Positions 6,725 through 43,441 of a DNA stretch of 52,945 nt are shown piece by piece. The stretch comes from Ramlibacter sp. (GTDB lineage Bacteria; Pseudomonadota; Gammaproteobacteria; Burkholderiales; Burkholderiaceae_C): contig JALHLO010000003.1 of NCBI GenBank assembly GCA_022844525.1, positions 1 to 52,945 of the forward strand, written 5' to 3'. Position 1 is the first letter of the stretch. Every line of letters begins with the position of its first letter. A program made the translations under genes and the position numbers. Below the pieces are notes generated by a model. That model did not search any database. It had not been told where the DNA came from and was given only the letters and a program-made list of their open reading frames with translations.

Positions 6725-6738
6725 TTGAGCCACGTCAA
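6725..6738. promoter_or_regulatory. FNR/ANR-type box TTGAGCCACGTCAA
   Basis: Exact TTGA-N6-TCAA; centre 6731.5; CATGAT (-10-like) at 6760-6765 gives class-II spacing to the 6786 gene. Confidence 0.7.
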
Positions 6739-6785
6739 CCGTGCAGCAGTGCAACGGCCCATGATCGGGTAAAAAAGGGAACGCC

Positions 6786-9230
6786 ATGAACCAATCTGCC
6801 ACATTCGAAGTGGGCAACCTCCTGTCGCCGCTGTCCGCTCGCGGGGTAGAAAAACGGTTGAAAGCCCTTCCCGGCGTTGCCGAAGCCACGGTGAACCCGG
6901 TTGCTGGTAGCGCCACTGTTTCCTTCGACGCGGCCATCGCGAGCCCGGAACGGATCCGCACCGCCATCGAGGAGTGCGGATACCACTGCGCGGGCGAGCT
7001 CCAGCCGCTGCATGTATGCGACCAGGGGGCAGCAGCGGGACACACGCATCATGGCCACCGCCCGCCGCCCACGATGCCCGAGAGCCACGCGATGCATGAC
7101 GGCCACGCGGCGCACGGCGGAGACGCTTCCCAGGGCGCCGCTTCGGTGGCCAAGGGCGGCGGAGCCGCCGATCACCACGACATGATGCATGACATGGGTC
7201 ATGCGCCCGGCCAGTCGATGGACGACATGGTGCGCGACATGCGCAACCGCTTTTTCATCGCACTGGCGTTCGCGATCCCGGTGTTCCTGTACTCACCGAT
7301 GGGCGCGATGATCGGCCAGTTCGACGTGCCCTTCGGCATGGACCGCAAGCTGTTCCTGTTCCTGGTGGCTTCCGGCGCCATCCTCTATCCCGGCTGGCCG
7401 TTCTACATCGCGGCCTGGCGGGCGCTGCGCAACCGCGTCGTCAACATGGCGACGCTGGTGGCCCTGTCGGTCGGCACCGGCTACGTCTTCAGCCTCGGCG
7501 CGACCTTCGTGTACGAAGGCGATGTCTTTTACGAGGCCGCCGCCACCCTGCTCGTCTTCATCCTGCTCGGACACTGGCTGGAGATGCGCGCACGCGCCGG
7601 CGCCTCGGACGCCATCCGGTCCCTGATGAACCTGGCGCCGCCGATGGCCACCGTCCTGCGCGGCGGCGTCGAGCAGAAGCTTGCCACTTCGGAGGTGGTG
7701 CTCGGCGACACCGTGATCGTCAAGCCGGGCGACAAGGTGCCAGTGGACGGCGTGGTGACGGAGGGCGCTTCGCAAGTGGACGAGTCGATGCTCACCGGCG
7801 AGTCGATGCCGGTGAAGAAGGTTCCGGGCGACGCGGTGATCGGTGCGACCATCAACAAGAGCGGCAGCTTCCGCTACCGCGCTACCAAGGTCGGCGCCGA
7901 CACCGCGCTGGCGCAGATCGTCAAGCTGGTCCAGGAAGCGCAGAACTCCAAGGCTCCGGGGCAGTTGCTCGCCGACCGCGCCTCGCAATGGCTGGTGCTC
8001 GCCGCGATCGGCATCGGCCTGGCCACCTTCGTCGTCTGGTACTGGGTGCTCGGCCAGCCGCTGCTGTTCGCGCTGACGCTCACCATCACCGTGTTCGTCA
8101 TCGCCTGCCCCGACGCCCTGGGCCTCGCGACCCCCATGGCGGTGATGGTCGGCACGGGCCTGGGCGCGATCAACGGCATCCTGTTCAAGAACGCAGCGGC
8201 GCTGGAAAACGCGACCAAGCTGAATGTGGTGGTCTTCGACAAGACCGGAACCCTCACGGTGGGGCAACCGGACGTGGTGGACGTCGTCACGGCCCCGGAT
8301 GTTCAACCGGGTGAACTGATCGCAACGGCGGCAGCGGTCGAGAAGTTCTCGGAACACCCCCTCGCGCTCGCCATCCTCAAGCGCGCCGGCGACGTTCCCA
8401 TCCAGCAGGCGCAGGAGTTCACCAACATCGACGGCCAGGGCGCGCGCGCTTCGCTGGCGGGCGACACGGTCCTCCTGGGCAACCGACTGCTCATGCAGGC
8501 CAACGGCGTGGACCTCTCCGCCCTGGAGCAGGAGGCCGCACGGCTGCAAGGCGCCGGCCGCACGGTGGTGCACGTCGCGCGGGGTGGGCGGCTGATGGGG
8601 CTGATCGCGATCGCGGATGCCGTACGCCCGAGTTCCCGCGACACCATCCAGGCCCTGCAGAAGCGCGGCGTGAAAGTAGCCATGCTCACCGGGGACAACC
8701 AGGCGACGGCCGAGCGCATCGGCCGCGAGCTGGGCATCGACATCGTGCTGGCCGATGTGCTGCCCGGACAGAAAGCCGACAAGATCAAGGAACTGCAGGC
8801 GCAGGGCCACAAGGTCGCCATGGTCGGCGACGGAATCAACGACGCGCCGGCACTCACGCAGGCCGACGTCGGTTTCGCCATCGGTGCGGGCACCGACGTG
8901 GCCATGGAAAGCGCGCAGGTCGTGCTGATGAAGAGCGATCCGTTCGATGTCGTCGGCGCCATCGAACTGTCGCGCGCGACGCTGCGCAAGATGCACCAGA
9001 ACCTGTGGTGGGCCGTGGGTTACAACACCATTGCGTTCCCGCTGGCAGCGGGAGTGTTCTATCCGTTCACGCTCTCGCCGGAAGTCGCGGCACTGTCGAT
9101 GTCCGGCAGTTCAGCCATCGTCGCCATCAACGCGCTGATGTTGAAGAGGACCCGGCTGACCGGGATCCATCGCTCGAAGCCGGGGCAGGAGCCCCAGCCC
9201 GCTGCCGGGGAACTCGCGGCGCAGGCGTAG
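6786..9230 (+). CDS. P1B-type heavy-metal ATPase with CPD motif and degenerate N-terminal HMA domain
   Basis: [28 protein letters not shown]; His/Met-rich linker [10 protein letters not shown]...[10 protein letters not shown]. Confidence 0.93.
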
Positions 9231-9260
9231 CCATCCGCCCTTCGAACCTGGAGCATCGAC

Positions 9261-10310
9261 ATGGAAACGGGAACGCGAGGGCAGCGCCTGAGGGTCGCCG
9301 TCGTCGGCTACGGCGTGATCGGCAAGCGGGTGGCGGACGCCGTGCGCCTGCAGCACGACATGCACCTGGCGGGCGTCGCGGACGTGGCGACCGACTGGCG
9401 ACTGCAAGTCGCGGCGAGCCTGGGGCTTCCGCTCTTCGCTGGCGACGATGCTTCGCTCGCCGGGATGAAGGCAGCCGGGCTGCCCGTGGTCGGCGCGCTC
9501 GACGCGCTGCTGCAGCTGGCCGATGTCGTCGTCGACTGCACACCCAAGAAGGTGGCCGCCGGGAACGTGGCACGCTACCGCGCGGCCGGCATCCATTTCG
9601 TCCTGCAAGGCGGCGAGAAACACGAGACCGCCGGCCACTCCTTCGTGGCAGAGAGCAACTACGCGCAGGCGGTAGGCCGCACCTCCACGCGGGTGGTCTC
9701 CTGCAACACGACCTCGATCGTTCGCACCTTCGGCGCGCTGCGCCGCGCCGGCCTGCTGGTCCACGCCAGGGGGACGCTGATGCGGCGCGCCACCGATCCG
9801 GTGGACAGCCACCGCGGTGGCCTGATGAACACGCTGGTGCCGGAAGACAAGATCCCCAGCCACCAGGGGCCGGATGCCCGCACGGTGGATCCCGCACTCG
9901 ACGTGGTGACCATGGCAGTCGCCGTGCCGGAAACGCTTGCGCACCTGCATTCCTGGGCCGTGCGCATGACGCGCGCGGCCAGCCGGGAGGAAGTGCTCGC
10001 CGCTTTCCGCGCGTCCACGCGGATCGCGCTGCTGCGCGCGGACAAGGGGCTGGGCGCGATCAATGTCGTCAAGGAAATGATGGCCGACCTCGGCCGCCCC
10101 CGCGCGGATCTCTACGAAGTGGGGCTGTGGGAAGACCTGGTGACCGTCGATGGCGATGAGCTGTTCTTCACCTACGTGGTGGACAACCAGGCGATCGTGA
10201 TTCCGGAAACGATCGACGCGATCCGCGCGCTCGGCGGACTCGAACCGGACGCGCAGGTCTCGATCGCCGCCACGGACTTCTGCCTGGGCATTCCGCTGCG
10301 TCTCGGCTGA
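9261..10310 (+). CDS. type II (archaeal-type) glyceraldehyde-3-phosphate dehydrogenase
   Basis: VAVVGYGVIGKRVADAV Rossmann start; VSCNTTS catalytic motif; overall type II layout. Confidence 0.85.
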   Translation: METGTRGQRLRVAVVGYGVIGKRVADAVRLQHDMHLAGVADVATDWRLQVAASLGLPLFAGDDASLAGMKAAGLPVVGALDALLQLADVVVDCTPKKVAAGNVARYRAAGIHFVLQGGEKHETAGHSFVAESNYAQAVGRTSTRVVSCNTTSIVRTFGALRRAGLLVHARGTLMRRATDPVDSHRGGLMNTLVPEDKIPSHQGPDARTVDPALDVVTMAVAVPETLAHLHSWAVRMTRAASREEVLAAFRASTRIALLRADKGLGAINVVKEMMADLGRPRADLYEVGLWEDLVTVDGDELFFTYVVDNQAIVIPETIDAIRALGGLEPDAQVSIAATDFCLGIPLRLG

Positions 10311-10462
10311 GCCTCCTGAAGCTGTGTCAGCGAACTGAGCCGGCGCCCGTGGTGGCGTGCCGAGTGCGCAGACGCGAAGTTGCCACGCGCAACATCAGCA
10401 TGCGCCTACAAAGTGCACTCCGCGGTCCCCTAGGATGGATCCACACTTACGGAGAATCGCAG

Positions 10463-12088: not shown

Positions 12089-12198
12089 CTGTCCGCGACG
12101 ACGACGATGCTTCTGTACATTCGGGTTCCTGCTGTCCTGGTCTTTCGTGCGCCGGTGACGGCGGCCATTGCAGGTTAAGTTCGCTCCAGGCCGACGAG

Positions 12199-12212
12199 TT
12201 GAGGCACATCAA
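12199..12212. promoter_or_regulatory. FNR/ANR-type box TTGAGGCACATCAA
   Basis: Exact TTGA-N6-TCAA in the intergenic region upstream of 12297. Confidence 0.6.
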
Positions 12213-12296: not shown

Positions 12297-14726
<2,430 letters not shown>

Positions 14727-14749: not shown

Positions 14750-14763
14750 TTGCGTTTCATCAA
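14750..14763. promoter_or_regulatory. degenerate FNR/ANR-type box TTGCGTTTCATCAA
   Basis: One mismatch to TTGA-N6-TCAA; TACCAT (-10-like) at 14786-14791 at class-II spacing. Confidence 0.45.
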
Positions 14764-16378: not shown

Positions 16379-16392
16379 TTGACCAAGATCAA
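16379..16392. promoter_or_regulatory. FNR/ANR-type box TTGACCAAGATCAA
   Basis: Exact TTGA-N6-TCAA; TACATT (-10-like, minus) at 16351-16356 toward 16278. Confidence 0.7.
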
Positions 16393-16452: not shown

Positions 16453-17892
16453 TCAAGCGTCCGTGCGAATCGCTCGGTTGGGCCGCGCCGTTTCGGTGGG
16501 GAAGACGAGCGTGAAAACCGTCTCTCCCGATGCTGCATCGCTGCGCGCCGAAACCTTACCGCCATGCGCCTGCATGATGGAGCGCACGATGGCCAGCCCG
16601 AGCCCGGTGCCGCCGCTGAGTCGCGCGCGCGAGGCGTCCACCCGGAAGAACCGGTCGAAGATGCGCTCCAGGTTTTCGGGCGCAATGGCGTCCCCCTTGT
16701 TGGCGACCTCGAGGCGGACGGCATCGACCACGGAGGAGACGGTCACCTGCACCGCCGAACCGGCTCGCGCGTGCCGGACCGCGTTGGACATGAGGTTGGT
16801 GATGGCACGTTGCACCAGCAAGGGGTCGGCCGCGACGACCGCGCTCCCCGCGACGGTGACACTCACCTCCTTTTCGTCGGCGATGACGGAAAGATAGTCT
16901 GCAACCCGCTGCACTTCCGCCTGCAGGTCCACCGGCTCGGTCTGCAGGACGGACGGACCGTGCTCGGCCTGGGCGAGGAACAGCATGTCCGCGATGACGC
17001 GCGAGAGTCTGTCGAGTTCCTCGACATCTCCCTCGAGCACATCGCGCAACTCCAATGGTGACCGCTGCTGGGACAGCGCGACCTGGTGCCGTCCCAGCAG
17101 CGTGGCGATCGGCGTGCGCAACTCGTGCGCCAGGTCGGCGGAGAACTCCTGCAGCCGCTGGTAGCCATGATCGATGCGCTCCAGCATGGCATTGAACTCG
17201 CGTGCCAGTTCACCGAGTTCCGCCGGCAGGTCCGCCTCCGACACGCGCCGATCGAGCGACTGGGCGCCGATCGTGGCGGCGAGCCGGCGAAAACGCCGCA
17301 GCGGCTCCAGGCCGGTGCGGGCGATCAGCCAGGCGCCGAGCGCGACCAGGCCCAGGAGAACAGGCGCGCCCAGCAGGCTCGCTTGCACGAAGCCACGCAG
17401 CAGTTGCGCATCGTGCCCGCGATCCAGCGAAACGTAGTAACGCACAGGTACGCCGTCCGCCAACGGCGCCTCGCCGCGCAACGCTTCCATCGGGCCGCCG
17501 CCGCGAGGCGCCCATCGCAGCGGGAAAGCGCCCTGTGCGTTCGCATCCATGGTGGCAATCGATTGCGCCGCCACGTCCGAGAAGCTTGCCAGAAGGGTGC
17601 CGGTGCGCACGTCCACCAGGGCCAGGTGCAGATCGTCATGGCCGATCAGCACGTCGTTGAAGCGATGCCGGTTGGACACCAGCGCGGCAGTGGTCGGTGC
17701 CTCGGACAGCAAATGGACGACGAGATCGCGCTTGCCATTCAACTCGGCGATGGAGCGCGCATCGAGCTGGCGCGACAGGGCCCAGTACCCCACACCCATG
17801 CCAACGAGCATGATCAAGAGGCCGAACACGGCGCCGGCCGCCGCCAGGCGCGCAGCCAGCGAGGCCCGAACGGGCACCCGGCCGAAACTCAC
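16453..17892 (-). CDS. cusS: heavy-metal sensor histidine kinase (CusS-like)
   Basis: HAMP + EFSADLAHELRTPIATLLGRHQVALSQ H-box; GTGLGLAIV ATPase motif. Confidence 0.93.
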   Translation of the reverse strand: MSFGRVPVRASLAARLAAAGAVFGLLIMLVGMGVGYWALSRQLDARSIAELNGKRDLVVHLLSEAPTTAALVSNRHRFNDVLIGHDDLHLALVDVRTGTLLASFSDVAAQSIATMDANAQGAFPLRWAPRGGGPMEALRGEAPLADGVPVRYYVSLDRGHDAQLLRGFVQASLLGAPVLLGLVALGAWLIARTGLEPLRRFRRLAATIGAQSLDRRVSEADLPAELGELAREFNAMLERIDHGYQRLQEFSADLAHELRTPIATLLGRHQVALSQQRSPLELRDVLEGDVEELDRLSRVIADMLFLAQAEHGPSVLQTEPVDLQAEVQRVADYLSVIADEKEVSVTVAGSAVVAADPLLVQRAITNLMSNAVRHARAGSAVQVTVSSVVDAVRLEVANKGDAIAPENLERIFDRFFRVDASRARLSGGTGLGLAIVRSIMQAHGGKVSARSDAASGETVFTLVFPTETARPNRAIRTDA

Positions 17893-18563
17893 CCGCGGCG
17901 CTCCAGCACGTAGCCCACGCCCCGCACCGTATGGATCAGCTTGTCGTCGAAGGGGTCGTCAATCTTTGCCCGCAAACGACGCACTGCGACTTCGACCACG
18001 TTCGTTTCGGAATCGAAGTGGATGTCCCACACCAGGGATGCGATCTGCGTGCGCGAGAGAACCTGGCCGGCTTTCTGCGCCAGCAGCGACAGCAAGGCGA
18101 ACTCCTTGGCAGACAGGTCGACGCGGCGGCCGGAACGCGTTGCCCGGTGACGCACCGGATCGATCTCCAGGTCCGCCACCCGGACCACCGGATCCGCCGG
18201 CACCGCCTGGTTGCGCTTGAGCAGCGCGCGGACACGCGCAAGCAGCTCGGGGAACTGGAAGGGCTTGACCAGGTAATCGTCGGCCCCGAGGTCGAACCCG
18301 CGCACCTTGTCGTCCACGCGCTCACGGGCCGTGAGCATCAGCACCGGTGTCTGCCGGGACGTGCGCAACGCAGAGAGCACGGCGAAGCCGTCGATCCCCG
18401 GCAGCATCACGTCGAGGATGACCAGGTCGTGGTCGCCGTTGACTGCAACGTGCAAACCGTCCGTGCCATTGCTGGCCACCTCCACCGTGTAGCCGCTCTC
18501 CGCGAGCCCTTGCCGAAGGTACTCTGCGGCTTTCGGCTCGTCTTCCACGACGAGGATCTTCAC
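17889..18563 (-). CDS. cusR: heavy-metal response regulator (CusR/CopR-like), GTG start
   Basis: VKILVVEDEPKAAEYLRQGL; OmpR-type wHTH; overlaps the cusS start. Confidence 0.93.
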   Translation of the reverse strand: MKILVVEDEPKAAEYLRQGLAESGYTVEVASNGTDGLHVAVNGDHDLVILDVMLPGIDGFAVLSALRTSRQTPVLMLTARERVDDKVRGFDLGADDYLVKPFQFPELLARVRALLKRNQAVPADPVVRVADLEIDPVRHRATRSGRRVDLSAKEFALLSLLAQKAGQVLSRTQIASLVWDIHFDSETNVVEVAVRRLRAKIDDPFDDKLIHTVRGVGYVLERRG

Positions 18564-18573: not shown

Positions 18574-18591
18574 GATAACAAAACCGTAATG
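18574..18591. promoter_or_regulatory. CopR/CusR-like operator GATAAC-AAAACC-GTAATG
   Basis: Same spacing as the other boxes; sits between cusR and the 18686 lipoprotein. Confidence 0.5.
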
Positions 18592-19647: not shown

Positions 19648-19661
19648 TTGACCGGTATCAA
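19648..19661. promoter_or_regulatory. FNR/ANR-type box TTGACCGGTATCAA
   Basis: Exact TTGA-N6-TCAA between divergent 19614(-) and 19709(+). Confidence 0.65.
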
Positions 19662-19708: not shown

Positions 19709-20596
19709 ATGACCACCGAACTCTTTGGATCCGATGCTTATTCGCCCGCCGAAGTCGCGCGCCGGGTGGAAACCGTCGGCGTCGCGAAGGCGCAGATGGC
19801 GCTGCTGCCGCTGGCGATGCTCGGCGTGCTCGCCGGAGCTTTCATCGGCCTGGGCTCGATGTTGTTCGTGCTCGTTCGGGCCGACGCCACCCTGGGGCTC
19901 GCGGCCTCGCAGCTGGTGTCCGGACTGGTGTTCTCGCTCGGCCTCGTGCTGGTGGTCGTCGCGGGCGCGGAGCTATTCACCGGCAACAACCTGCTGGCCA
20001 TGGCCTGGGCGGACGGCCGGATCACTTCAACACAGGTGTTGCGCAACTGGGTCGTGGTGTGCGCCGCCAATTTCGCAGGCGCCGCAGGGCTCGCCCTCCT
20101 CGTCTACCTGAGCGGCCACACGGGCCTGGGCAGCGGGGCGGTCGGGCGGGCAGCGGTGCGCATCGCGCTGGCCAAGCAGGACCTGGGCGTGCAGCAGGCC
20201 TTCTTTCGCGGCGTCCTGTGCAACGTGCTCGTGTGCATGGCGGTGTGGATGGCCATGGCCGGCCGCAGTGTCGTCGACAAGGCGGTGGCGGTGATCTTCC
20301 CCGTGACGGCATTCGTCGCAGCCGGGTTCGAGCACAGCATCGCCAACATGTACCTCATGCCGCTGGCGATGCTGGTGCAGGCCGGCAGTGGCGTGGCTGC
20401 CGGCGAATCGGCAGTGACCCTGGGGGGCATGGGCGCCAACCTCGCGGTCGTGATCGCCGGCAATCTGGTCGGCGGGAGCGTTCTCGTGGGACTCACGTAC
20501 CACTTGATCTACCGCCGCAAGCCGCAGCCTGCATTGGAGGCGCGGACACGCTCGAAGCCAGCTTCAGAAGAACCACTGCGCGTAGGCGAACCATAG
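19709..20596 (+). CDS. formate/nitrite transporter (FNT) family protein
   Basis: AGAELFTGNNLLAMAW FNT motif; 6 TM helices. Confidence 0.9.
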   Translation: MTTELFGSDAYSPAEVARRVETVGVAKAQMALLPLAMLGVLAGAFIGLGSMLFVLVRADATLGLAASQLVSGLVFSLGLVLVVVAGAELFTGNNLLAMAWADGRITSTQVLRNWVVVCAANFAGAAGLALLVYLSGHTGLGSGAVGRAAVRIALAKQDLGVQQAFFRGVLCNVLVCMAVWMAMAGRSVVDKAVAVIFPVTAFVAAGFEHSIANMYLMPLAMLVQAGSGVAAGESAVTLGGMGANLAVVIAGNLVGGSVLVGLTYHLIYRRKPQPALEARTRSKPASEEPLRVGEP

Positions 20597-21715
20597 GTCC
20601 TTCCGCTGGCCGAATTCGGAGCTGCGATGGCCACCATAGAGTTGCGCGCCAGCCGCAAGGTCCAGGTTCTGGCGCACTGAGTAAGTGAGTCGAGGTGAGA
20701 CGTACCGGCTGCGGTCGTCCAGGTTGCTCGCCAGCCAGGTTTCCCACTTCAGGAGCGGCGTGAACTCGTAGCGGGCGTAGAAGCCCGCGTAGCGGCGTCC
20801 CAGGTTCTGGCGCCGGCCGAGGAGCAAGCCTGCGACGTCATAGCGCGCCGCATCCCTCGTACCGGAACCGTCGAAATACAGTTCGGCCGTCAGCGTCAAC
20901 GTGTTGGCGAACGCGTAGTCCCACCCGAGCAGCAAGCGCTGAGGCGTGCCGCCTGTGTTCTGGCGGGTCACCGTCCATTCTCCGCGGATGCCGGCACCAC
21001 CGAGCTGGCCGGCGACATCCAGTCCCAGCACGTAGCCTTCGCGGACCTGTCCGGCCGTCACGGAATAGTCCAGGCCCGACGTGTTCGCATGCCACTGCGC
21101 AAGAGCGAAGTCTCGCTCGCCGCGCACGGGCGCGTACACGAAAGAAAGGCGGGACACCGCGGAGCGCTTGTGCTCCAGCAGCAGGGCGTCGACGCCCTCC
21201 CGTTCGCCGGGCTCCAGCGCGGTGGGACTGACGGGATTCAACAAGTCCAGCGGGCTCCAGAAGCGTCCGGTGCCCCATGCGATCCGCTGGCGCCCTACGC
21301 GCAGGTCGGTGGCCCCGCGAGAAAGCGTGATCGCCGCGCGCCGGACGCGGTGGCGGCCCAGTACATCGCCGCCGCGCACATATTCGCTCTCGAGGTCCCA
21401 GTAGGTGCGGCGTGGCAATGCGGCTAGCAACGCGAACTCGCGTGTGCCGAGATAGCTGCCGAGGAGCACTTCGTTGTCGTACTGGAATTCGACGCCGACC
21501 GCGGGCCGCAGCTGGCCCTTCCACTCCAGGCGCAGCCGGTTGACGTCCAGGCTGTAGCCTTCCGGCCCGCCGAAGCTGGTGGTGGAATGGATCGCCGTGT
21601 TCTTGTAGTGCCCGGAGAATGCCACTCCATTGGCATCGGGGTCCTCGGCCTGCGCAGAGCCCGCCGCGGCCAACAATGCGATGGCAAAGCCGGCGGCACT
21701 CGCCTGCCTAGGCAT
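20564..21715 (-). CDS. outer-membrane beta-barrel protein
   Basis: Signal peptide; amphipathic strands; C-terminal aromatic WFF. Confidence 0.75.
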   Translation of the reverse strand: MPRQASAAGFAIALLAAAGSAQAEDPDANGVAFSGHYKNTAIHSTTSFGGPEGYSLDVNRLRLEWKGQLRPAVGVEFQYDNEVLLGSYLGTREFALLAALPRRTYWDLESEYVRGGDVLGRHRVRRAAITLSRGATDLRVGRQRIAWGTGRFWSPLDLLNPVSPTALEPGEREGVDALLLEHKRSAVSRLSFVYAPVRGERDFALAQWHANTSGLDYSVTAGQVREGYVLGLDVAGQLGGAGIRGEWTVTRQNTGGTPQRLLLGWDYAFANTLTLTAELYFDGSGTRDAARYDVAGLLLGRRQNLGRRYAGFYARYEFTPLLKWETWLASNLDDRSRYVSPRLTYSVRQNLDLAAGAQLYGGHRSSEFGQRKDLWFAYAQWFF

Positions 21716-24224
21716 GCCGGATCGCCTCCGCTGGCTGCAGCCGTGCCGCGCGCCAGGCGGGGTACAGCGCCGCGACCACGCTCAGGGCTAGCAGCAGGAG
21801 GGCGGGACGCACGACGCTGCCGGCCAGGAACACCGGGTAGATGATGCCGGTCAAGCCGGGAATGGCCTGCAGGCCTTTTGCATACACGGATAGGTCGAGT
21901 CCCCGCGCGCCAAGATAGCCGACCACGGGGATCCCCACGGCAAGGCCCGCGAAGATCCCGACGGTGGCGAGGACGAGCGATTCATACACCACGAGCATGA
22001 CGATGGCGCGCGGACGCGTGCCCAGGGCCATCATGATGCCGAGCTCGCGCGTGCGCTCCATCACCGACATCATCAACGTGTTCATGACGCCGATGGCCAC
22101 GACCGACAGGACGATTCCCGTGATGAGGCGCAGGACCACGCGCACGTACTCGATCATCTGGTCCAGTTCGGGCAGCAGGCTGCGCCAGGTGACAGCCACG
22201 GCGTCGGCCGACAGCAACTCGCCGATCGCGGCGCGCGCGGCGTCGAGCCGGTCGCGGTCCTTCAGGCGCACGGCAATCGTCGAGATCCGCCCCGGCATGC
22301 CAAGCAGGTTCTGTGCGGCCCCCAGAGTCACGAATCCCAGCGTCGCATCGAAGGCATCGCTGCCGGTGTCGAAAAGCCCCACAACTCGATACGCGGCCGA
22401 GCCGACGCTCCCGTCCGCTGCCTGCGCCATCACCACCACCTTCTCGCCGAGCCGCAGGCCCAGCTTCTCCGCGAGCCGGTCCCCGAGCACGATGTCCTGG
22501 TCCGCGCCGGGCTGCAGCATGCGGCCGCTGCGCACCGCACGGTCCATGAACGTGACCTGGCGTTCGGCCGTGGCGTCGATGCCGACCAGCATGAGATTTT
22601 GCGACTGCGTCGCACTGTTCGCGAGCGCCATGGACTGCACGCGCGGCGCGGCTGCCGCGACATCGGGCACGGCGCGCACCTGCCGCAGCAGCACGTCTGC
22701 ATCGGCGAGCGAGTTCGCCGGCTCCATGTCGGTGCGCAAACGCGGGTGCTGCACCTGGATGTCGCCGGTCACGTAGCCAGTGGAGTTCTCGACGATCTGG
22801 ACCAGGTAGCCGTCGACGAAGCCGATGAGGAAGACGAACGCCCCCACGCCAAACGCGGTGGCGGTCACGGTCAGGGCAGTCCGTTGCGGATTGCGGCCGA
22901 TGCCGCGCGCCGCGATCTTCACCAGCAGGGGCAAGGGCAGCCACGATGCACGGGCGGTGCGGCGTGCGCGCGCCAGGGCGCGGTCACCGCTGCGCTCGCT
23001 GGGCAGGCCGCGAATGGCCGCGATCGGCACCAGGCTGGCGGCCCGCCAGGCGGGATAGATGGCGGCGCAGACGCCGATGGCGAAGACCAGCAGCGAGATC
23101 GCCGCGGCCCGGTCCGCCCGCGGCAACGGATACACCATGGATGTCAGGCCCTGCATGGTCTCCATCGCCCGCACGTAGCGGCCGAAATCCATGCCGTTCA
23201 CTGCGTAATACTGAACCAGCGCGATGCCGGCGGCGGCGCCCAGCAGCAACCCCGCCAGCCCCAGCAGACAAGCCTCGTAGAACACCACGCGCGTCAGTTG
23301 CGCGCGGCTGGTGCCCAGTGCCATCATCACGCCGAATTCGCGCGTGCGCTCCAGCACCGCCATCAGCACGGTGTTCGTGATGCCCACGGCCACCACCACG
23401 AACAGCACCAGCAGGAGCACGTAACCGACGACTTCGTGGAACGCGACCGATTGCACCACGAGGGGCAGCAGGCGCGGCCAATCGAGGACTTCGTGGTCGG
23501 CCCCGAGCGCGGCCTGCAGCCGCGCCGTCACGGCGGGCACCTCCCCACGGTCCTTCAGGCGCGCCACCACGGTCGTCACGCCGCCTTCCGTGGCGTACAG
23601 GTCCTGTGCCGCCGCCAGCGTCATGAGCACGTAGCTGCCATCGAGCATGTCCATGCGCGTGCGGAAGATCCCCTGCACCCGGTAACGGGCAGCACCGACG
23701 GAACCGTCGGACGCCTGCGTCACCAGCACCAGCTCGCCGCCGACCCTGGCGCCCAGGGCTTCGGCGATGCGCGATCCCACCACGACTGCGTCGCGTTCGC
23801 CGGGCTGCAGGAAGCGCCCTTGCTCGATCGTCTGGTGCAGGGTGGTGACGGCCTGCTCCGCCTGCGGGTCCACTCCCAGGACCATGACACCCCGCGACTT
23901 GTCCGCCACGCTGGCCAGCGCACTGCCTTCGAGGCGCTGGCTCACGGCGGAACCTCCGGCGGCCTGGCTGACCCGGCCCGCCACCGAGCTTCCGTCGGCG
24001 AGCATCCGGTCCAGTGACTGGTCGTCGTGGTACCCCTCGCGATGGACCTGCAGGTGGCCAGACAGGTAGCGCGTGGAGTTCTCGACCATCTGCGCGTTCA
24101 CGCCGTCGATGAAGGCCCACAGGAACAGCAGCGCCACCATGCCGACCGAGATCGCAGCCACGGTGATGGTGCTGCGGCGCACGTTGCGCAGCACGTTGCG
24201 GGCCGCCAGGCGCAGGAAGATCAC
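21708..24224 (-). CDS. fused double FtsX/MacB-type ABC permease
   Basis: 838 aa with two homologous halves (FVDGYLVQIVENSTGYVTGDIQVQH vs FIDGVNAQMVENSTRYLSGHLQVHR). Confidence 0.9.
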   Translation of the reverse strand: MIFLRLAARNVLRNVRRSTITVAAISVGMVALLFLWAFIDGVNAQMVENSTRYLSGHLQVHREGYHDDQSLDRMLADGSSVAGRVSQAAGGSAVSQRLEGSALASVADKSRGVMVLGVDPQAEQAVTTLHQTIEQGRFLQPGERDAVVVGSRIAEALGARVGGELVLVTQASDGSVGAARYRVQGIFRTRMDMLDGSYVLMTLAAAQDLYATEGGVTTVVARLKDRGEVPAVTARLQAALGADHEVLDWPRLLPLVVQSVAFHEVVGYVLLLVLFVVVAVGITNTVLMAVLERTREFGVMMALGTSRAQLTRVVFYEACLLGLAGLLLGAAAGIALVQYYAVNGMDFGRYVRAMETMQGLTSMVYPLPRADRAAAISLLVFAIGVCAAIYPAWRAASLVPIAAIRGLPSERSGDRALARARRTARASWLPLPLLVKIAARGIGRNPQRTALTVTATAFGVGAFVFLIGFVDGYLVQIVENSTGYVTGDIQVQHPRLRTDMEPANSLADADVLLRQVRAVPDVAAAAPRVQSMALANSATQSQNLMLVGIDATAERQVTFMDRAVRSGRMLQPGADQDIVLGDRLAEKLGLRLGEKVVVMAQAADGSVGSAAYRVVGLFDTGSDAFDATLGFVTLGAAQNLLGMPGRISTIAVRLKDRDRLDAARAAIGELLSADAVAVTWRSLLPELDQMIEYVRVVLRLITGIVLSVVAIGVMNTLMMSVMERTRELGIMMALGTRPRAIVMLVVYESLVLATVGIFAGLAVGIPVVGYLGARGLDLSVYAKGLQAIPGLTGIIYPVFLAGSVVRPALLLLALSVVAALYPAWRAARLQPAEAIRHA

Positions 24225-24227
24225 ACC

Positions 24228-26488: not shown

Positions 26489-26498
26489 GGAGTGCGGG

Positions 26499-27401
26499 TC
26501 AGGCGCCCCGCGCCCCTTCCTGAAGCGCGCGCACACCGGCCGCGACATCTTCCAGTACATCGATCGCGTTGGTCTCATGCGGCAGCGTGTTGCAGGTCAC
26601 GATCCGTGCGGCTCCGGCCTGCTGCAGGACTTGCAGTGCATCGGGTGCGAACACCGCGTGGACACCGACGCAGACGGGCGCGCTGCCGAAGGCCGAGCGC
26701 ACCTGGCGCACCGCCACAGCCATGGTCCGGGCACTGGAAATGATGTCGTCGATCAGCACGGGCGTGCGGTCGGCGTAGGCTTCGGCGGCGGGAACGCTGA
26801 TCTCCACGCTGCGGTCGCCCAGGCGCTTCTTCTCCAGCACGATCGCGGGACAGCCGATGCGGTCCGCGACATCTCGCGCCCACTGTTCGCTCTCGGAATC
26901 CGGGCCGACAATCACCGGGCGGTTCACCTGCGTGCCGACCCACCGCGCAATTGCGGGCGCACTGGCGATTGCGCGCACCGGAACACGGTAGATCTCGGCC
27001 AGCGACGCGATCCGGTGCAGGTGGGGATCGACGGTCACCAGCCAGTCGAAGCGCTGCGAGATGAACTCGGCAAAGGTGCGTGAGGTGATTGCCTCACCCG
27101 GGTGGAAACGCCTGTCCTGGCGCATGTACGGCAGATAGGGCGCGACCAGGCCGACGCTGCGAGCGCCGAGCTCGCGCGCGGTGTCCGCCAGGTACCAGAG
27201 CCCCAGGGCCTGCGGATCGGGATCGCGGAGGGACGCAACGACCACGACGTCGGCGTCCCGCACTTCGCTGGCCAATCGCAGGTAAGACTCGCCATCGGGA
27301 AAGCGCCGCGACTCCACTGCACCGAGCGGTGCCTGCAGGTGACCGGCCAGGCCCGCCGCGGCCGCTTCGGCGCCGGGCGCGGGCAGGACCAGCAGCGTCA
27401 T
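26499..27401 (-). CDS. ribose-phosphate pyrophosphokinase family protein
   Basis: RFPDGESYLRL; YLPYMRQDRRFHPGEAITS; VLIDDIISSARTM. Confidence 0.85.
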   Translation of the reverse strand: MTLLVLPAPGAEAAAAGLAGHLQAPLGAVESRRFPDGESYLRLASEVRDADVVVVASLRDPDPQALGLWYLADTARELGARSVGLVAPYLPYMRQDRRFHPGEAITSRTFAEFISQRFDWLVTVDPHLHRIASLAEIYRVPVRAIASAPAIARWVGTQVNRPVIVGPDSESEQWARDVADRIGCPAIVLEKKRLGDRSVEISVPAAEAYADRTPVLIDDIISSARTMAVAVRQVRSAFGSAPVCVGVHAVFAPDALQVLQQAGAARIVTCNTLPHETNAIDVLEDVAAGVRALQEGARGA

Positions 27402-28927
27402 GCAGCCTCCGCGATGGACACGAGGTCCTCTTGCGCCGCGATGTAATCCTGCGCGTATTCAAGTTCGCCGAGCGTCTGCGCATGCAGGTGGAAGAGCGGC
27501 TGCCCGCGCTGCACGCGCGCGCCGAGCTGCACCTCCATGCTGACTCCCGCGGCGGGAGAGGCCGGAGCGCCCGCCAGCTTGGCCGCCATGGCGATGCGCC
27601 GGTTGTCGATGGAGGTGACCACGCCGCTCGCGCTCGCGGCGCAAGGGCGCACATGGGGCGCGACCGGCGGCTCGCGCAAGCCGCCCTGCGCCTCGCAGAT
27701 CGCCAGGAACTGCTGCCATGCGCGGCCGCTGTCCAGCACGTCGCGCGCCAGCGCAACGCCCGCGCCTTCCGCCGCCCGGCCTGCCATCTCCAGCAGGTGT
27801 CCCGCCAGCAGCAGGCCGCGCTCACGCAAGTCCTGGGGAGCGGAAGCCTGGCGTTGGAGCACGGCCAGCACATCCATGGCCTCCAGCGCCGGACCGATGC
27901 CCCGCCCCACCGGCTGGCTCCCATCGGTCTGCACGACACGCATCTGCAAACCGATGGCACTGCCGGTATCAGTCAGCGCCGCCGAGAGCGCATCAGCGGC
28001 CGCGCGACTGCGCACCTTCGCGGTGGGCCCGACCGGAATGTCGATCAGCACCCGCTGGGATCCTGCCGCCGCCTTCTTCGAGAGAACCGACGCCACCAGT
28101 TGCGCGGTGCCGTCCAGGTCCAGGGGGCGTTCGACCCGGATGAGGACGTCGTCGGCCGGGCTGAGCTGCACCGCGCCGCCCCAGACGATGCAACCGCCAT
28201 GCTGCTCGACGACGCGCCGCATCGCTTTCAGGTCCAGATTGACCGGTGCCAGGGTTTCCATCGTGTCCGCCGTGCCTGCCGGCGAAGTGATGGCGCGCGA
28301 GGAAGTCTTGGGCATCAGGACGCCGCAAGCCGTCAGGATCGGCACCACCAGCAGCGTCGTCCGGTTGCCGGGCAAGCCACCTACGCAGTGCTTGTCGATC
28401 ACCGGCGCCCTGGGCCAGGTCAGGCGTTCGCCGACATCGATCATGGCGCGGGTGAGTGCGATGGTCTCTGCGCCGCTCATGCGATCGCCGACACAGGCCG
28501 TCACGAACGAGGCGAGATGCAGGTCGGACAAGCGGTTGGCAGCAGCGTCCCGCATGATCCCGAGCAGCTTGTCGTAGTCCAGCGGAACGCCGTAGATCTT
28601 GGCGCGGATGTGCCGCAGCGATTCGAGCACCGGCGGATGCCGCACGTCCAGCACCTGGCCGTCGCTGACGCCCAGCCCGCGCCAGGCGGCCTCGGATAGC
28701 CCAGCCTCGCCTACGGCGAGCCAAGGGGCCAGCACGTGATGCACCGTTGCGATGAGACTCCGCCCGCCGACACTGAGCTCCACGCGCGCCTGTGCCTCGT
28801 AGCCTTCCGCCTTGCACACTTCGCAGTCTGCCCGCATGTAGACAACCGCGGCCTGATAGGTATCGATGCCTGCCCGCCGTGCCACGAGGCGGGCGCCGGT
28901 GCCATGGCGATGCTCTGTTGCGACCAT
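27398..28927 (-). CDS. thymidine phosphorylase / archaeal AMP phosphorylase family protein
   Basis: VIDKHCVGGLPGNRTTLLVVPI; TSSRAITSPAGTADTMETLAPV. Confidence 0.9.
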   Translation of the reverse strand: MVATEHRHGTGARLVARRAGIDTYQAAVVYMRADCEVCKAEGYEAQARVELSVGGRSLIATVHHVLAPWLAVGEAGLSEAAWRGLGVSDGQVLDVRHPPVLESLRHIRAKIYGVPLDYDKLLGIMRDAAANRLSDLHLASFVTACVGDRMSGAETIALTRAMIDVGERLTWPRAPVIDKHCVGGLPGNRTTLLVVPILTACGVLMPKTSSRAITSPAGTADTMETLAPVNLDLKAMRRVVEQHGGCIVWGGAVQLSPADDVLIRVERPLDLDGTAQLVASVLSKKAAAGSQRVLIDIPVGPTAKVRSRAAADALSAALTDTGSAIGLQMRVVQTDGSQPVGRGIGPALEAMDVLAVLQRQASAPQDLRERGLLLAGHLLEMAGRAAEGAGVALARDVLDSGRAWQQFLAICEAQGGLREPPVAPHVRPCAASASGVVTSIDNRRIAMAAKLAGAPASPAAGVSMEVQLGARVQRGQPLFHLHAQTLGELEYAQDYIAAQEDLVSIAEAA

Positions 28928-30282
28928 TACAGCTCCACCGCCTGCATCTGCTCCGCGACCACGGCCGGCCAGCCATGCTTCTCCCCGATCGCCTGGCGCA
29001 GGCTGTCCGCGGCCGCCGCTTCTCCGTGGCTGACGAAGACGCGCCTGGGGGGACGAGGCAAGCGGCCGATCCAGTGCAGAAGCTCCGTGCGGTCCGCGTG
29101 CGCCGACAGGGAGCCGAGGCTGACCACTTCGGCGCGCACCGGCACGTATTGGCCGTGGATCTTGATCTCCTTGGCCCCACCGGCCAGCGCCGCCCCGCGC
29201 GTGCCCACCGCCTGGTAGCCCGCCAGCAGGATGGTATTGCGGTGGTCCGGCGCGAACGCCTTCAGGTGGTGCACGACCCGGCCGCCCGTGGCCATCCCGC
29301 TGGCGGAGATGATCACGGCGGGGTAACGCATCTCGTTCAGCTTGCGCGACTCCTCGACCGAATTCACGATCTTCGCGGCGCGGCACATGCGCTCGCACTG
29401 CTGCGCGTCGAGACGGTGCTCCTTCTGGTGCTTGTGGTAGATCTCGGTCGCGTCGGCCGCCATGGGGCTGTTGAGGAACACCGGCAGGTCCGGGATGCGG
29501 CCTTCGCGCTTCAGGTTGGACACCATGTACATCAGTGCCTGCGCGCGCCCCACGGCGAAGGCGGGCACGACCACGATGCCTCCGCGTGCAGCCGTGCGAT
29601 TGATGGTGGCTGCGAGCAGGGTGGCGGGGTCCTCCTGCTCGTGGATCCGGTCACCGTAAGTGGACTCGATGACGACGTAGTCGGCTGCCGGCGGGGCCTC
29701 GGGGGGACGCATCACGATGTCCTCGTCGCGCCCGAGATCGCCGGAGAACAGCAGCGAGCCGCCGTCCCAGCCAACGTGCACGCTCGCTGCGCCGAGGATG
29801 TGGCCGGCCAGACTGAAGCGCACGGTGACACCGGGAATGGGCTCGAAAGCTTCTCCGTAGTCCTGTGGCTTGAACTGTTTCAAGACCGACCGGGCGTCCT
29901 CTTCCGTGTAGAGCGGCAAGGCCGGCTGGTGCTTGGAGAAGCCATGCCGGTTGGCGTAGAAGGCATCCTCTTCCTGAAGGTGACCCGAATCCGGCAGCAG
30001 CAGCGTAGCGAGAGCGCGTGTGGCGTGGGTGCTGAACACCCGTCCCTTGAAGCCCTGCTTGGCGAGCGCCGGCAGGTAGCCGCTGTGGTCGATGTGGGCA
30101 TGCGTCAGGACGACTGCGTCGATCTTCTCCGGCGCGAGGGGAAAGGCGTCCCAGTTGCGCAGTCGCAGTTGCTTGAGGCCCTGGAACAGGCCGCAATCGA
30201 CCAGCATGCGCCGGTCTCCATGTTCCAGGAGGTACTTGGAGCCGGTCACGGTGCCGGCTGCGCCCATGAATGTCAAACGCAT
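28927..30282 (-). CDS. MBL-fold beta-CASP ribonuclease
   Basis: LTHAHIDHSGYLP; SLAGHILGAASV; ISASGMATGGRVVHHLK; LSAHADRTELLHW. Confidence 0.93.
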   Translation of the reverse strand: MRLTFMGAAGTVTGSKYLLEHGDRRMLVDCGLFQGLKQLRLRNWDAFPLAPEKIDAVVLTHAHIDHSGYLPALAKQGFKGRVFSTHATRALATLLLPDSGHLQEEDAFYANRHGFSKHQPALPLYTEEDARSVLKQFKPQDYGEAFEPIPGVTVRFSLAGHILGAASVHVGWDGGSLLFSGDLGRDEDIVMRPPEAPPAADYVVIESTYGDRIHEQEDPATLLAATINRTAARGGIVVVPAFAVGRAQALMYMVSNLKREGRIPDLPVFLNSPMAADATEIYHKHQKEHRLDAQQCERMCRAAKIVNSVEESRKLNEMRYPAVIISASGMATGGRVVHHLKAFAPDHRNTILLAGYQAVGTRGAALAGGAKEIKIHGQYVPVRAEVVSLGSLSAHADRTELLHWIGRLPRPPRRVFVSHGEAAAADSLRQAIGEKHGWPAVVAEQMQAVEL

Positions 30283-30304
30283 GCTTCTGTCCTTCCGTTG
30301 CGAC

Positions 30305-31105
30305 TCAACGCTTCTGCAGGTTGCGCTGGGTGAAGATCTCTTCGTCAACACGCACGTTGTACGTGGCGTCCTTGACGAGGATGGTGGTGGAGTTGCCGGG
30401 CTTGCCCAGTGGCTTCATCTCCCATCGCGTGGGAATGGTGCGCCCGCCGACTGCACGCACGTCGCCAAAGGACATGACGCGCACCAGTTCGCCGCGGTCG
30501 CTGAAGTATTCCTGCTTCACGGGAATGAAGTCGCGCCGGACCCAGTAGACGATGCGTCCCCAGACCACCGCGGCATCGGGCTTGGGTAGGGCCTCGACCT
30601 TGTACAAGGGCTGGCCATCGACGGTTTCCTGACCGAGGACCTTCTGGCTGTAGTCGTCGATCGCGCTGCTTTGCTTGACCAGGTCGTCGTTGGTGAAGTC
30701 CGATCCCATCCAGGGCTGCAGCATCATCGAAGGGGGGATCTTGATGGTGCGCTCGACGGCCGGGAGGTAGTTCCACATCTCGTTGCCGATTCGCAGCGAA
30801 CCGATGCCCGCCTCCTTGGCCGGCGCGAGCACGCGAACGAACGAGCGCTTCGGCCGGTCCATCCAGATGCGCAGCGCCAGCGTGCGCTCCCAGCGCGGGG
30901 TGACGATGCGCATGTCGAACTCGCCTTGCATGGTGTTGGCCCACAAGAGCGACTCGACCTTCTCCACGACTTCGCGCCCCGTCGGAGCTGACGTTTGAGC
31001 AAACGCCTGCTGGCCGAGCATCGCCAGTGCCCCGGCGGCCAACAGCCCGCGGCGGCAGGCATCGACTGGCAACGAGGAAGCGTCATGAACAGGTGTGCCC
31101 GACAT
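30305..31105 (-). CDS. LolA-like outer-membrane lipoprotein-sorting protein
   Basis: MQGEFDMRIVTPRWERTLALRIWMDRPKRSFVRVLAPAKEAGIGSLRIGNEMWNYLP pattern. Confidence 0.85.
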   Translation of the reverse strand: MSGTPVHDASSLPVDACRRGLLAAGALAMLGQQAFAQTSAPTGREVVEKVESLLWANTMQGEFDMRIVTPRWERTLALRIWMDRPKRSFVRVLAPAKEAGIGSLRIGNEMWNYLPAVERTIKIPPSMMLQPWMGSDFTNDDLVKQSSAIDDYSQKVLGQETVDGQPLYKVEALPKPDAAVVWGRIVYWVRRDFIPVKQEYFSDRGELVRVMSFGDVRAVGGRTIPTRWEMKPLGKPGNSTTILVKDATYNVRVDEEIFTQRNLQKR

Positions 31106-31108
31106 GCG

Positions 31109-31765
31109 TCAGGCCGAAATTGCCAGTTGCGAGAGTTTGGGCAGGAAGCGCGGCGTCTTCGCAGCGTACTGGCGGTACTCGTCGCCGAATTGCCGGACCA
31201 TCTCCGCCTCTTCCCTCTTCGCCAGCGCCGCGTACATGATCACAAGGATCGGGAACATCACCAGCGTGATGAGAGTCGGCCACTGCAGCAGGAAGCCGAA
31301 CATGATCAGCACGAAGCCAACGTACTGGGGGTGGCGCATACGCGCATACAGGCCCGTTGTCGCCAGGCGGTGCTCGCGCTGGGCGGCGTAAAGGATTTTC
31401 CAGGCGCTCGCCAGCAGGATGAAGCCCCCGAAGATGAACACGCTGCTGAGGAGGTGGAAAGGCCCGAAATGGGGATTGTTCTTCCAGCCGAACATGACCT
31501 CCAACAGGTGGCCGGCGTCGTGCGAGAGGAAATCCACGCCGGGAAACCGCGAAGCGAGCCAGCCCGAGAGCAGGTAGATGGTCAGCGGAAAGCCGTACAT
31601 CTCGGTGAAGAGCGCCACGATGAATGCGGAGAAGGCGCCGAAGGAGCGCCAGTCGCGCGCACTCTGCGGCTTGGCAAAGCTGAACGCGAAGATGATGAAG
31701 ATCAGCGAGTTCAGGAGCACCAGGCTCCAGATGCCGTATGCGGGTGCGGTGTCGTTCATGGTCAA
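31109..31765 (-). CDS. isoprenylcysteine carboxyl methyltransferase-like membrane protein
   Basis: Multi-TM; TTGLYARMRHPQYVGFVLIMFGFLLQWPT; EEAEMVRQFGDEYRQYAAKTPRFLP. Confidence 0.88.
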   Translation of the reverse strand: MTMNDTAPAYGIWSLVLLNSLIFIIFAFSFAKPQSARDWRSFGAFSAFIVALFTEMYGFPLTIYLLSGWLASRFPGVDFLSHDAGHLLEVMFGWKNNPHFGPFHLLSSVFIFGGFILLASAWKILYAAQREHRLATTGLYARMRHPQYVGFVLIMFGFLLQWPTLITLVMFPILVIMYAALAKREEAEMVRQFGDEYRQYAAKTPRFLPKLSQLAISA

Positions 31766-32028
31766 CCTTCCTTCGTGCTGCCGGCGTTCGGAGTACCTGG
31801 AGCGTTCTTGCTTGCGTGGGTGCCGTGCCCGCCATGCCCTCCATGTCCCCCGTGGTGGAACATGTGCAACAGCGGGCAGGCGAGCAGCAGCAGGTAGGGC
31901 AGATACCCGAACAGGTGCGCCCGGTGCTCGCTCAGGAGAAAGAATGCCCCGATGGCCAGGAAGATGGCCAGCGCGATCTTCCCGCGCGAGCCGCCTGTGG
32001 ACGGCTGGGTGTAGTGGTCGTGGTCCAT
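31762..32028 (-). CDS. DUF2933-like small His-rich membrane protein
   Basis: One to two TMs then HMFHHGGHGGHGGHGTHAS tail. Confidence 0.75.
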   Translation of the reverse strand: MDHDHYTQPSTGGSRGKIALAIFLAIGAFFLLSEHRAHLFGYLPYLLLLACPLLHMFHHGGHGGHGGHGTHASKNAPGTPNAGSTKEG

Positions 32029-32080
32029 GGAATCCTCCGTTTACCTGTCACCAAGGTACCCCCCGTGTCACAGTCACTCT

Positions 32081-32094
32081 TGACGTGCGTCAAC
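32081..32094. promoter_or_regulatory. FNR/ANR-type box TTGACGTGCGTCAA
   Basis: Exact TTGA-N6-TCAA; TACCTT (-10-like, minus) at 32054-32059 at class-II spacing to the 32028->20564 operon. Confidence 0.75.
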
Positions 32095-32104: not shown

Positions 32105-32122
32105 CATTACCAATTCGTAATG
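32105..32122. promoter_or_regulatory. CopR/CusR-like operator CATTAC-CAATTC-GTAATG
   Basis: Near-perfect 18-bp palindrome (one mismatched pair) 11 bp from the FNR-type box. Confidence 0.65.
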
Positions 32123-35029: not shown

Positions 35030-35043
35030 TTGATTCGGGTCAA
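35030..35043. promoter_or_regulatory. FNR/ANR-type box TTGATTCGGGTCAA
   Basis: Exact TTGA-N6-TCAA; TACCCT (-10-like, minus) at 35003-35008 toward 34970. Confidence 0.7.
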
Positions 35044-35471: not shown

Positions 35472-35485
35472 CTGATCTGGATCAA
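35472..35485. promoter_or_regulatory. degenerate FNR/ANR-type box CTGATCTGGATCAA
   Basis: One mismatch; intergenic upstream of 35575; no convincing -10. Confidence 0.3.
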
Positions 35486-42438: not shown

Positions 42439-42452
42439 TTGAGGCGCGTCAA
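42439..42452. promoter_or_regulatory. FNR/ANR-type box TTGAGGCGCGTCAA
   Basis: Exact TTGA-N6-TCAA between the divergent USP genes. Confidence 0.65.
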
Positions 42453-42503
42453 GACACTGTTTCGCATTCGTGAAAGGATGCCGATGACGAACATTCACCA
42501 GAC

Positions 42504-43397
42504 ATGCCCGAAGCCAAGGTCCAGCTACTTCTTGCTTTTGACGAGTCCGAAGCAGCACTGCGGGCTTGCGAGATCGTCGCTGGGTATGGTTGCGACCGCT
42601 CGCGAATGGACGTCACGCTGCTGAACGTGCAGCGTCCTCCTGTGAGGGTCTGGGTGGAGCCGGGTGTGGAGCAGGCTGTGCTCGAGAAGGCTCTCCGGGA
42701 GGAGGGCCTGCAAATGCTCGGAAGCGGCTTGGCGGTGCTGCGGTCCGCAGGGCTGGCAGCCCGAGGTGTCGTAGCAGTGGGCGCGCCAGCCGAGGTGCTC
42801 CTGCAGTGGGCGCGAGAGAACCGTACCGACGTCCTTATCATGGGTACCGGCCGGCAGGGCATGCTCGGCGGATACGCGATCGGCTCGGTTGCTCTCAGGA
42901 TCGCGCCAGCAGCCGGGTGTCCTGTCCTGCTGGTGCCGCCGAACGCTCGATTTACTGCGAGGCCGGGAACGACATTGCGCATCACGGCCCCCGTCGATGG
43001 CTCCGAGGCCTCGTCCGAGGCGATTCGCCGGTTGGCGGGCTGGGCGCCGCTGCTCGGGGCCATGCACGTGGACCTCGTGAACTTTGGCAGCGGACTTACC
43101 TTGGCGGATGCAGTGCTTCCGCCCCACGACGATGTCCTGGCGCAATGGAGCGGTGTTCAAGCGCGAGCAGCGTTTCACACGCCTTCGGAACTCCTTTCCG
43201 CCGCAGGCATCCCGTACAGGCTGCACGGCCTGACCGGCGATCCCGGCACAGGGATCGTCAGGTTCGCACGGGACACTTCAGCGGATCTCATCGCGATGGG
43301 AACGCGTGGCATGGGAGCCATGCACCACTTCGTGCTGGGATCCGTCGCTCTGACCGTCGCCCAGGAGAGCGAGGTGCCGGTGGCACTTCTCCGGTAG
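42504..43397 (+). CDS. tandem universal stress protein
   Basis: VLIMGTGRQGMLGGYAIGSVALRIAPAAGCPVLLVP and LIAMGTRGMGAMHHFVLGSVALTVAQESEVPVALL. Confidence 0.92.
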   Translation: MPEAKVQLLLAFDESEAALRACEIVAGYGCDRSRMDVTLLNVQRPPVRVWVEPGVEQAVLEKALREEGLQMLGSGLAVLRSAGLAARGVVAVGAPAEVLLQWARENRTDVLIMGTGRQGMLGGYAIGSVALRIAPAAGCPVLLVPPNARFTARPGTTLRITAPVDGSEASSEAIRRLAGWAPLLGAMHVDLVNFGSGLTLADAVLPPHDDVLAQWSGVQARAAFHTPSELLSAAGIPYRLHGLTGDPGTGIVRFARDTSADLIAMGTRGMGAMHHFVLGSVALTVAQESEVPVALLR

Positions 43398-43427
43398 CGA
43401 TTCCACCCAGGGTCGCAAACGTCAACT

Positions 43428-43441
43428 TTGATCCTGCTCAA
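43428..43441. promoter_or_regulatory. FNR/ANR-type box TTGATCCTGCTCAA
   Basis: Exact TTGA-N6-TCAA; TCTAAT (-10-like) at 43465-43470 at class-II spacing. Confidence 0.7.

What the first reader, a model, noticed from the sequence alone, without database searches (positions are those of the whole stretch)
6725..43441. Recurrent FNR/ANR-type palindromes suggest a hidden oxygen-responsive regulon spanning the metal island
Exact TTGA-N6-TCAA occurs at 6725, 12199, 16379, 19648, 32081, 35030, 42439 and 43428, all between genes and mostly in divergent or promoter regions. Degenerate copies occur at 14750, 35472 and 37800. For a GC-rich 53-kb sequence a rough expectation is well below one exact copy. 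Genes behind these boxes include two P1B ATPases, the DUF411 protein, the FNT channel, the 10-gene minus operon, a beta-propeller and two USPs. No FNR/CRP-family gene is in the window, so the regulator would act in trans. Limit: coding sequence was not exhaustively scanned.
Basis: partly seen in the sequence, partly recalled or inferred. Interest (0 to 1): 0.85.

Follow-up and report, generated by a model that had tools for sequence, protein, structure and literature searches.

The report
FNR-controlled copper and stress island
A 53-kb stretch of a Burkholderiales-like bacterium packed with copper-handling and stress genes carries an unusually dense set of what look like genuine binding sites for the cell's oxygen-sensing regulator FNR, and a separate set of copper-regulator sites on other genes; it is a new example of a known kind of low-oxygen gene cluster.

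Summary
TTGA-N6-TCAA occurs 9 times (0.30 expected). The genome has 52 copies; window density is about 16 times the rest (Poisson P about 1e-8), and only spacing 6 is enriched. Of 50 copies read in context, 44 are intergenic, many ahead of standard anaerobic genes (ccoN, nirK, hemN/fnr, nrdD). A -10 hexamer TAnnnT sits 21-22 nt after the box, where class II FNR promoters need it, in relatives too. Two FNR proteins with all four cluster cysteines are encoded elsewhere. The -10s correct some targets: 12199 points to the MFS gene and 19648 to DUF6629, not to the second P1B ATPase or the FNT channel. New here: four CopR-type boxes mark a separate set of promoters. Relatives lack the copper-ATPase box (0 of 9), so that wiring looks local. 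Closest known: the B. cenocepacia lxa locus. Oxygen-dependent expression is untested.

The parts
6725..6738 (+). FNR box 1, TTGAGCCACGTCAA, 48 bp before the copper P1B ATPase (6786-9230); -10-like CATGAT at 6760-6765 (21 nt after the box)
12199..12212 (-). FNR box 2, between MFS (10880-12088, -) and the second copper P1B ATPase (12297-14726, +); -10 TAACCT at 12172-12177 points to MFS
14750..14763 (+). Degenerate FNR box TTGCGTTTCATCAA with -10 TACCAT at 14786-14791, before DUF411 (14818-15282)
16379..16392 (-). FNR box 3, before a small exported-looking protein 16015-16278 (-); -10 TACATT at 16351-16356
19648..19661 (-). FNR box 4, between DUF6629 (18967-19614, -) and the FNT channel (19709-20596, +); -10 TAATCT at 19621-19626 points to DUF6629
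29870..29883 (+). Ninth exact match, inside the MBL-fold coding gene; judged chance
32080..32093 (-). FNR box 5, best-scoring site; -10 TACCTT at 32053-32058 faces the 10-gene minus operon
20564..32028 (-). Ten-gene operon: DUF2933, ICMT/PEMT-like methyltransferase, LolA-like, beta-CASP MBL nuclease, thymidine/AMP-phosphorylase-like, PRPP-synthetase-like, ABC1 kinase, ABC ATPase, FtsX/MacB permease, unknown
35030..35043 (-). FNR box 6, before the beta-propeller gene (33468-34970, -); -10 TACCCT at 35003-35008
35472..35485 (+). One-mismatch FNR box CTGATCTGGATCAA, intergenic (0.13 expected by chance at this score)
42439..42452 (.). FNR box 7, between two divergent tandem-USP genes (41374-42318, -; 42504-43397, +); no clear -10 (weak TTCAAT on the minus side)
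43428..43441 (+). FNR box 8, before a small Cys-containing ORF (43552-43776); -10-like TCTAAT at 43465-43470 (23 nt)
609..625 (+). CopR-type box ATTGCAAAACTGTAATG, upstream of the OEP / multicopper oxidase / azurin-like genes
5332..5348 (-). CopR-type box ATTACAAAACGGTGATC, upstream of CusF (5418-5780)
18575..18591 (+). CopR-type box ATAACAAAACCGTAATG, upstream of copRS
32106..32122 (+). CopR-type box ATTACCAATTCGTAATG, upstream of unknown gene 32157-33449, 12 bp from FNR box 5
16453..18563 (-). CopR/CopS-type two-component system (TIGR01387 and TIGR01386, both above cut-off)

Best explanation
The boxes are functional binding sites of the host cell's oxygen-sensing FNR/ANR-type regulators, encoded elsewhere in the genome. 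When oxygen falls, [4Fe-4S]-FNR dimers bind the boxes. At six to seven of them FNR activates a sigma-70 promoter in the class II position (box centre near -41.5, -10 hexamer 21-22 nt after the box). This would switch on a copper-exporting P1B ATPase, an MFS transporter, DUF411, DUF6629, a small exported protein, a 10-gene operon (RNA nuclease, nucleotide salvage, ABC export) and a beta-propeller, and probably the universal stress proteins. The island's CopRS system has its own boxes on a different set of promoters (oxidase/efflux genes, CusF, copRS, gene 32157). Shown by sequence: the boxes, their enrichment, intergenic placement, promoter geometry, the FNR proteins, the genome-wide regulon, the CopR-type boxes. 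Inferred: actual binding, oxygen dependence, activation rather than repression, and the physiological reason (export and repair must replace oxygen-dependent copper oxidation when oxygen is absent).
For: Nine sites against 0.30 expected. N6 only: 52 of 93 over spacings 3-9 genome-wide; 9 against 0 in the window. 44 of 50 own-genome sites intergenic in DNA that is 12% intergenic. Downstream genes include ccoN, a CcoI-like ATPase, nirK, hemN, fnr, nrdD and a NarX/NarQ-like kinase. TAnnnT at 21-22 nt in 15 of 69 site-gene orientations, usually 0-1 at other distances; independently 12 of 64 in relatives. A matrix trained outside the window ranks the eight window sites first. FNR proteins: L102 passes the NCBIfam Fnr cut-off (241.7 against 228), and both align to FNR crystal sequences (5cvr/5e44 group) with CxxCx5C, the central Cys and ETVSR conserved.
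Against: No expression or binding data. Box 7 and the plus-strand sides of several boxes lack a good -10, so the USP, FNT and second-ATPase assignments are weak. Copper ATPase and DUF6629 orthologues in relatives lack boxes (0 of 9, 0 of 10), so on those genes there is no phylogenetic footprint. The genome is a draft with 384 contigs, 92% complete and 5.4% contaminated; that this contig shares a cell with the FNR genes is assumed.
Confidence: 0.85

Rival explanations
1. The boxes are real but read mainly by another E-x2-S-R Crp/Fnr regulator such as an NO-responsive DNR-like protein, so the island answers nitrosative/denitrification signals rather than oxygen itself.
For: A regulator without the Cys cluster and with helix EYFSR, DNR-like by eye, is encoded (L006), and a nirK-type nitrite reductase is present with a box. 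DNR and FNR/ANR boxes are known to be nearly identical (general knowledge).
Against: Two oxygen-sensing-type FNR proteins are present, and many box-bearing genes (hemN, ccoN, nrdD) are classic FNR/ANR targets. Both regulators may share sites.
Confidence: 0.12
2. Some boxes act as repressor or non-productive sites: FNR binds, but the copper and stress genes are governed by CopRS or other factors.
For: Boxes at 42439 and on the plus side of 12199, 19648 and 35030 have no -10 at the class II distance. CopR-type boxes exist in the island.
Against: Five window boxes have an exact TAnnnT at 21-22 nt and one a CATGAT at 21 nt. The CopR-type boxes lie at other promoters.
Confidence: 0.1
3. The sites are chance or arise from composition or repeats.
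For: The one coding site scores at chance.
Against: 0.30 expected; other spacings empty; intergenic bias; promoter geometry.
Confidence: 0.01

Closest known systems
lxa (low-oxygen-activated) locus of Burkholderia cenocepacia, BCAM0275-BCAM0323 (PMC6127331, PMC3759415)
   Same: Large accessory cluster in Burkholderiales with USPs and an MBL-superfamily protein (BCAM0300, about 51 kDa, about the size of the window's MBL protein); associated with low oxygen.
   Different: lxa is reported with six USPs, a heat-shock protein, phosphofructokinase and others, and its low-oxygen induction is measured. The window has two tandem-USP genes, a copper resistance set and CopRS, and no expression data.
FNR/ANR regulon with class II promoters (E. 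coli FNR, PMC3688515)
   Same: Consensus TTGATnnnnATCAA, centre about -41.5 at most activated promoters.
   Different: Target set includes copper exporters and stress genes on an island rather than core respiration only.
[quoted passage not shown]
   Same: Burkholderiales accessory element without its own fnr, with a class II box read by the host's FNR.
   Different: One gene there; at least six boxed promoters here.
CopR/AgrR-type metal regulons (PMC7380067, PMC11195947)
   Same: Boxes match the 6-4-6 inverted repeat ATKACANNNNTGTMAT; a CopRS-type system is present.
   Different: Here they sit beside, and apart from, FNR-boxed promoters.

Membership tests
FNR/ANR regulon | TTGA-N6-TCAA palindromes, spacing-specific, intergenic | tested here: met
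FNR/ANR regulon | Box centred near -41.5 (correctly spaced -10) | tested here: met
   for 12199, 16379, 19648, 32080, 35030 (and 6725 with a weaker hexamer); not seen for 42439
FNR/ANR regulon | FNR with four cluster cysteines and E-x2-S-R helix in the genome | tested here: met
FNR/ANR regulon | Oxygen- and FNR-dependent expression | not testable with these tools
   needs RNA-seq or reporters
FNR/ANR regulon | Boxes conserved at orthologous genes | tested here: inconclusive
   Near MBL/TP/PRPP in some relatives; absent at P1B ATPase (0/9) and DUF6629 (0/10)
lxa locus | MBL-superfamily gene and USPs in one cluster | tested here: met
   lxa content
lxa locus | Six USPs plus heat-shock protein and phosphofructokinase genes | tested here: not met
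   Two USP genes, no Hsp20 or phosphofructokinase found among the window genes scanned
lxa locus | Sequence orthology and FNR boxes in lxa itself | not tested
   The lxa sequence was not retrieved; the 2013 source paper is not held
CopRS regulon | CopR/CopS family proteins and 6-4-6 ATTACA-type boxes at copper promoters | tested here: met

The most novel reading that the evidence does not exclude
The island's copper defence is split by two non-overlapping regulatory codes. The oxygen-dependent part (multicopper oxidase, outer-membrane efflux, CusF) is under the island's own CopR boxes. The oxygen-independent part (P1B ATPase, MFS, DUF411) and repair/stress genes are under the host's FNR, newly recruited in this lineage, so that copper export is armed in anticipation of anoxia, when Cu(I) toxicity rises and the oxidase fails.
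Probability: 0.35. Interest if true: 0.6.

Novelty: new member of a known kind. Interest (0 to 1): 0.45.

Why it matters
It gives a sequence-level case, testable promoter by promoter, of an accessory copper/stress island plugged into the host's oxygen-sensing network while keeping its own copper-sensing network. If the split is real, it says how bacteria may re-divide metal detoxification between oxic and anoxic life, and it names conserved unknown genes (DUF6629, DUF2933, DUF411, the MBL-TP-PRPP operon) as candidate low-oxygen genes in Burkholderiales.

Tried and rejected
The named-genome scan with the phosphorylase gave only two Polaromonas MAGs at about 62%, so the organism is not identified beyond a likely relative of Burkholderiales. 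Footprinting on the beta-propeller failed: no homologue at E<=1e-80 among 300 other family genomes. USP2 has two homologues and neither has a box nearby. The same-genus genome G273 has no N6 site in 40 kb around its orthologue of the phosphorylase. Literature searches for FNR or Anr control of copper efflux returned nothing directly on point. Considered and rejected: chance, compositional artefact, site 29870 as functional, and 37800 as a confident site.
Full report
Observation. Exact TTGA-N6-TCAA occurs nine times in the window; dinucleotide shuffles give 0.30, at most 3. The ninth, 29870, is inside the coding gene 28927-30282. The window is the whole of contig C3 of a 4.20-Mb draft genome. 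That genome has 52 such sites; the reversed control pattern has 16. Outside the window the density would give 0.55 sites per window, so nine is far beyond chance (Poisson 7.6e-9).

Spacing control. Among spacings 3 to 9 the genome has 93 sites, 52 of them N6, so the other six spacings average about 7. The window has only N6. In 752 kb around homologues of the thymidine-phosphorylase-like gene in relatives, N6 has 43 sites and other spacings 1 to 11.

Coding against intergenic. A simple codon-based gene caller was applied to the window and 31 fetched stretches: 44 of 50 N6 sites are intergenic although only 12% of this DNA is. These stretches were chosen because they hold sites, which does not bias the coding/intergenic split. 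In relatives 32 of 43 are intergenic in DNA that is 13% intergenic.

Promoter geometry. For 69 site-to-gene orientations in this genome, TAnnnT occurs 10 times at 21 nt and 5 times at 22 nt after the box, and 0 or 1 times at nearly every other distance. Relatives repeat this: 6 and 6 of 64 orientations. This is the class II position: in E. coli 19 of 23 directly activated promoters with a known start have the box at -41.5 +/-4 (PMC3688515). In the window it holds for 12199(-), 16379(-), 19648(-), 32080(-) and 35030(-), nearly for 6725(+) (CATGAT), and for the degenerate 14750(+) (TACCAT). It therefore assigns direction: the MFS gene rather than the second P1B ATPase, and DUF6629 rather than the FNT channel. 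A class I effect on the other side is not excluded.

Independent scoring. A matrix built from 38 sites outside the window puts the eight intergenic sites first in the window; 35472 follows with 0.13 expected; 37800, 14750 and 29870 fall into the noise by score alone.

The regulators and the rest of the regulon. No Crp/Fnr gene was found in the window. The genome has 18 HTH_Crp_2 matches above cut-off. Two proteins carry CxxCx5C, the central Cys and the ETVSR helix, and align over most of their length with FNR of known structure; one passes the NCBIfam Fnr cut-off. That gene is divergent from hemN with a box between them. Other boxed genes include ccoN, a CcoI-like P1B ATPase, nirK, nrdD, a nitrate sensor-like kinase, a ferredoxin, a globin, Hsp20 and another CopA-type ATPase. 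A gene read by eye as nirS (L112) found no NCBIfam match at 1e-40 and is not claimed. So the boxes belong to an ordinary anaerobic regulon of a denitrifier-like bacterium; the window is its densest stretch, with a second cluster (six sites in 20 kb) on contig C22.

The island. Genes include outer-membrane efflux, multicopper oxidase, azurin-like, CusF, two copper P1B ATPases, DUF411, CopRS, FNT, the ten-gene operon (gaps -8 to +22 nt), a beta-propeller, PII-like/DUF1538, GDT1, a cation P-type ATPase and two USP genes.

A second code. Reading the intergenic DNA showed a 17-nt motif ATTACAAAACnGTAATG: four copies in the window with up to three mismatches, none in shuffles. The motif was derived from copies in the window, so that shuffle count is not an independent test; the genome count is the better one: elsewhere in 4.15 Mb there are only two weak copies. 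It matches the ATKACANNNNTGTMAT box of the CopR relative AgrR (PMC7380067), and the window's two-component pair passes the CopR/CopS family cut-offs. The four copies precede the oxidase/efflux genes, CusF, copRS and gene 32157; none of these genes has an FNR box with a class II -10 facing it, although at 32080/32106 the two codes stand 12 bp apart in one divergent region. Binding was not tested; the match is by sequence.

Conservation. Boxes recur just upstream of the MBL gene or its operon in several relatives (G101, G135, G202, G163 exact; G213, G057, G199 near-exact). They do not recur at orthologues of the copper ATPase (0 of 9) or DUF6629 (0 of 10). The FNR wiring of the copper genes therefore looks lineage-specific.

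Comparison with known systems. The nearest in kind is the B. cenocepacia lxa locus, which shares USPs and an MBL protein but not the rest, and was not compared by sequence. A Burkholderiales precedent for an accessory element read by the host's FNR is cld of Ideonella dechloratans (PMC7349173). The claim made is: works like an FNR/ANR-regulated low-oxygen cluster (strong); is an lxa locus (not claimed).

Limits. No expression data; draft genome with some contamination; gene calls from a home-made caller; DNR-like regulators may share the boxes.

Noticed in passing
609-625, 5332-5348, 18575-18591, 32106-32122: Four CopR/AgrR-type boxes (ATTACA-N4-TGTAAT type), nearly confined to this contig in the genome.
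   Followed up: yes
32157-33449 (+): 430-aa protein without Pfam or NCBIfam match, 70-74% identical in copper islands of several relatives, behind a CopR-type box.
   Followed up: partly
27398-30282 (-) and G000:C173:4623-5969: MBL (beta-CASP) plus phosphorylase plus PRPP-synthetase-like module recurs in relatives; a second MBL copy 80% identical sits on contig C173, where a glycogen-phosphorylase-like gene also has an FNR box.
   Followed up: partly
33468-34970 (-): Beta-propeller gene with a class II FNR promoter but no homologue at E<=1e-80 in 300 family genomes; possibly a recent acquisition.
   Followed up: partly
45375-49481 (-): RadC, Gp3-like, YqaJ and DUF932 genes: plasmid, phage or integrative-element type genes at the island's edge.
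   Followed up: no
35868-37797 (-): PII-like protein next to two tandem DUF1538 membrane proteins.
   Followed up: no
19614-19661: DUF6629: the predicted start of transcription falls about at the ATG, suggesting a leaderless mRNA.
   Followed up: no
L087 (G000:C22:1-20000): Second FNR-box cluster, six sites in 20 kb, with ccoN, a CcoI-like ATPase, USP, a nitrate sensor-like kinase and nirK.
   Followed up: partly
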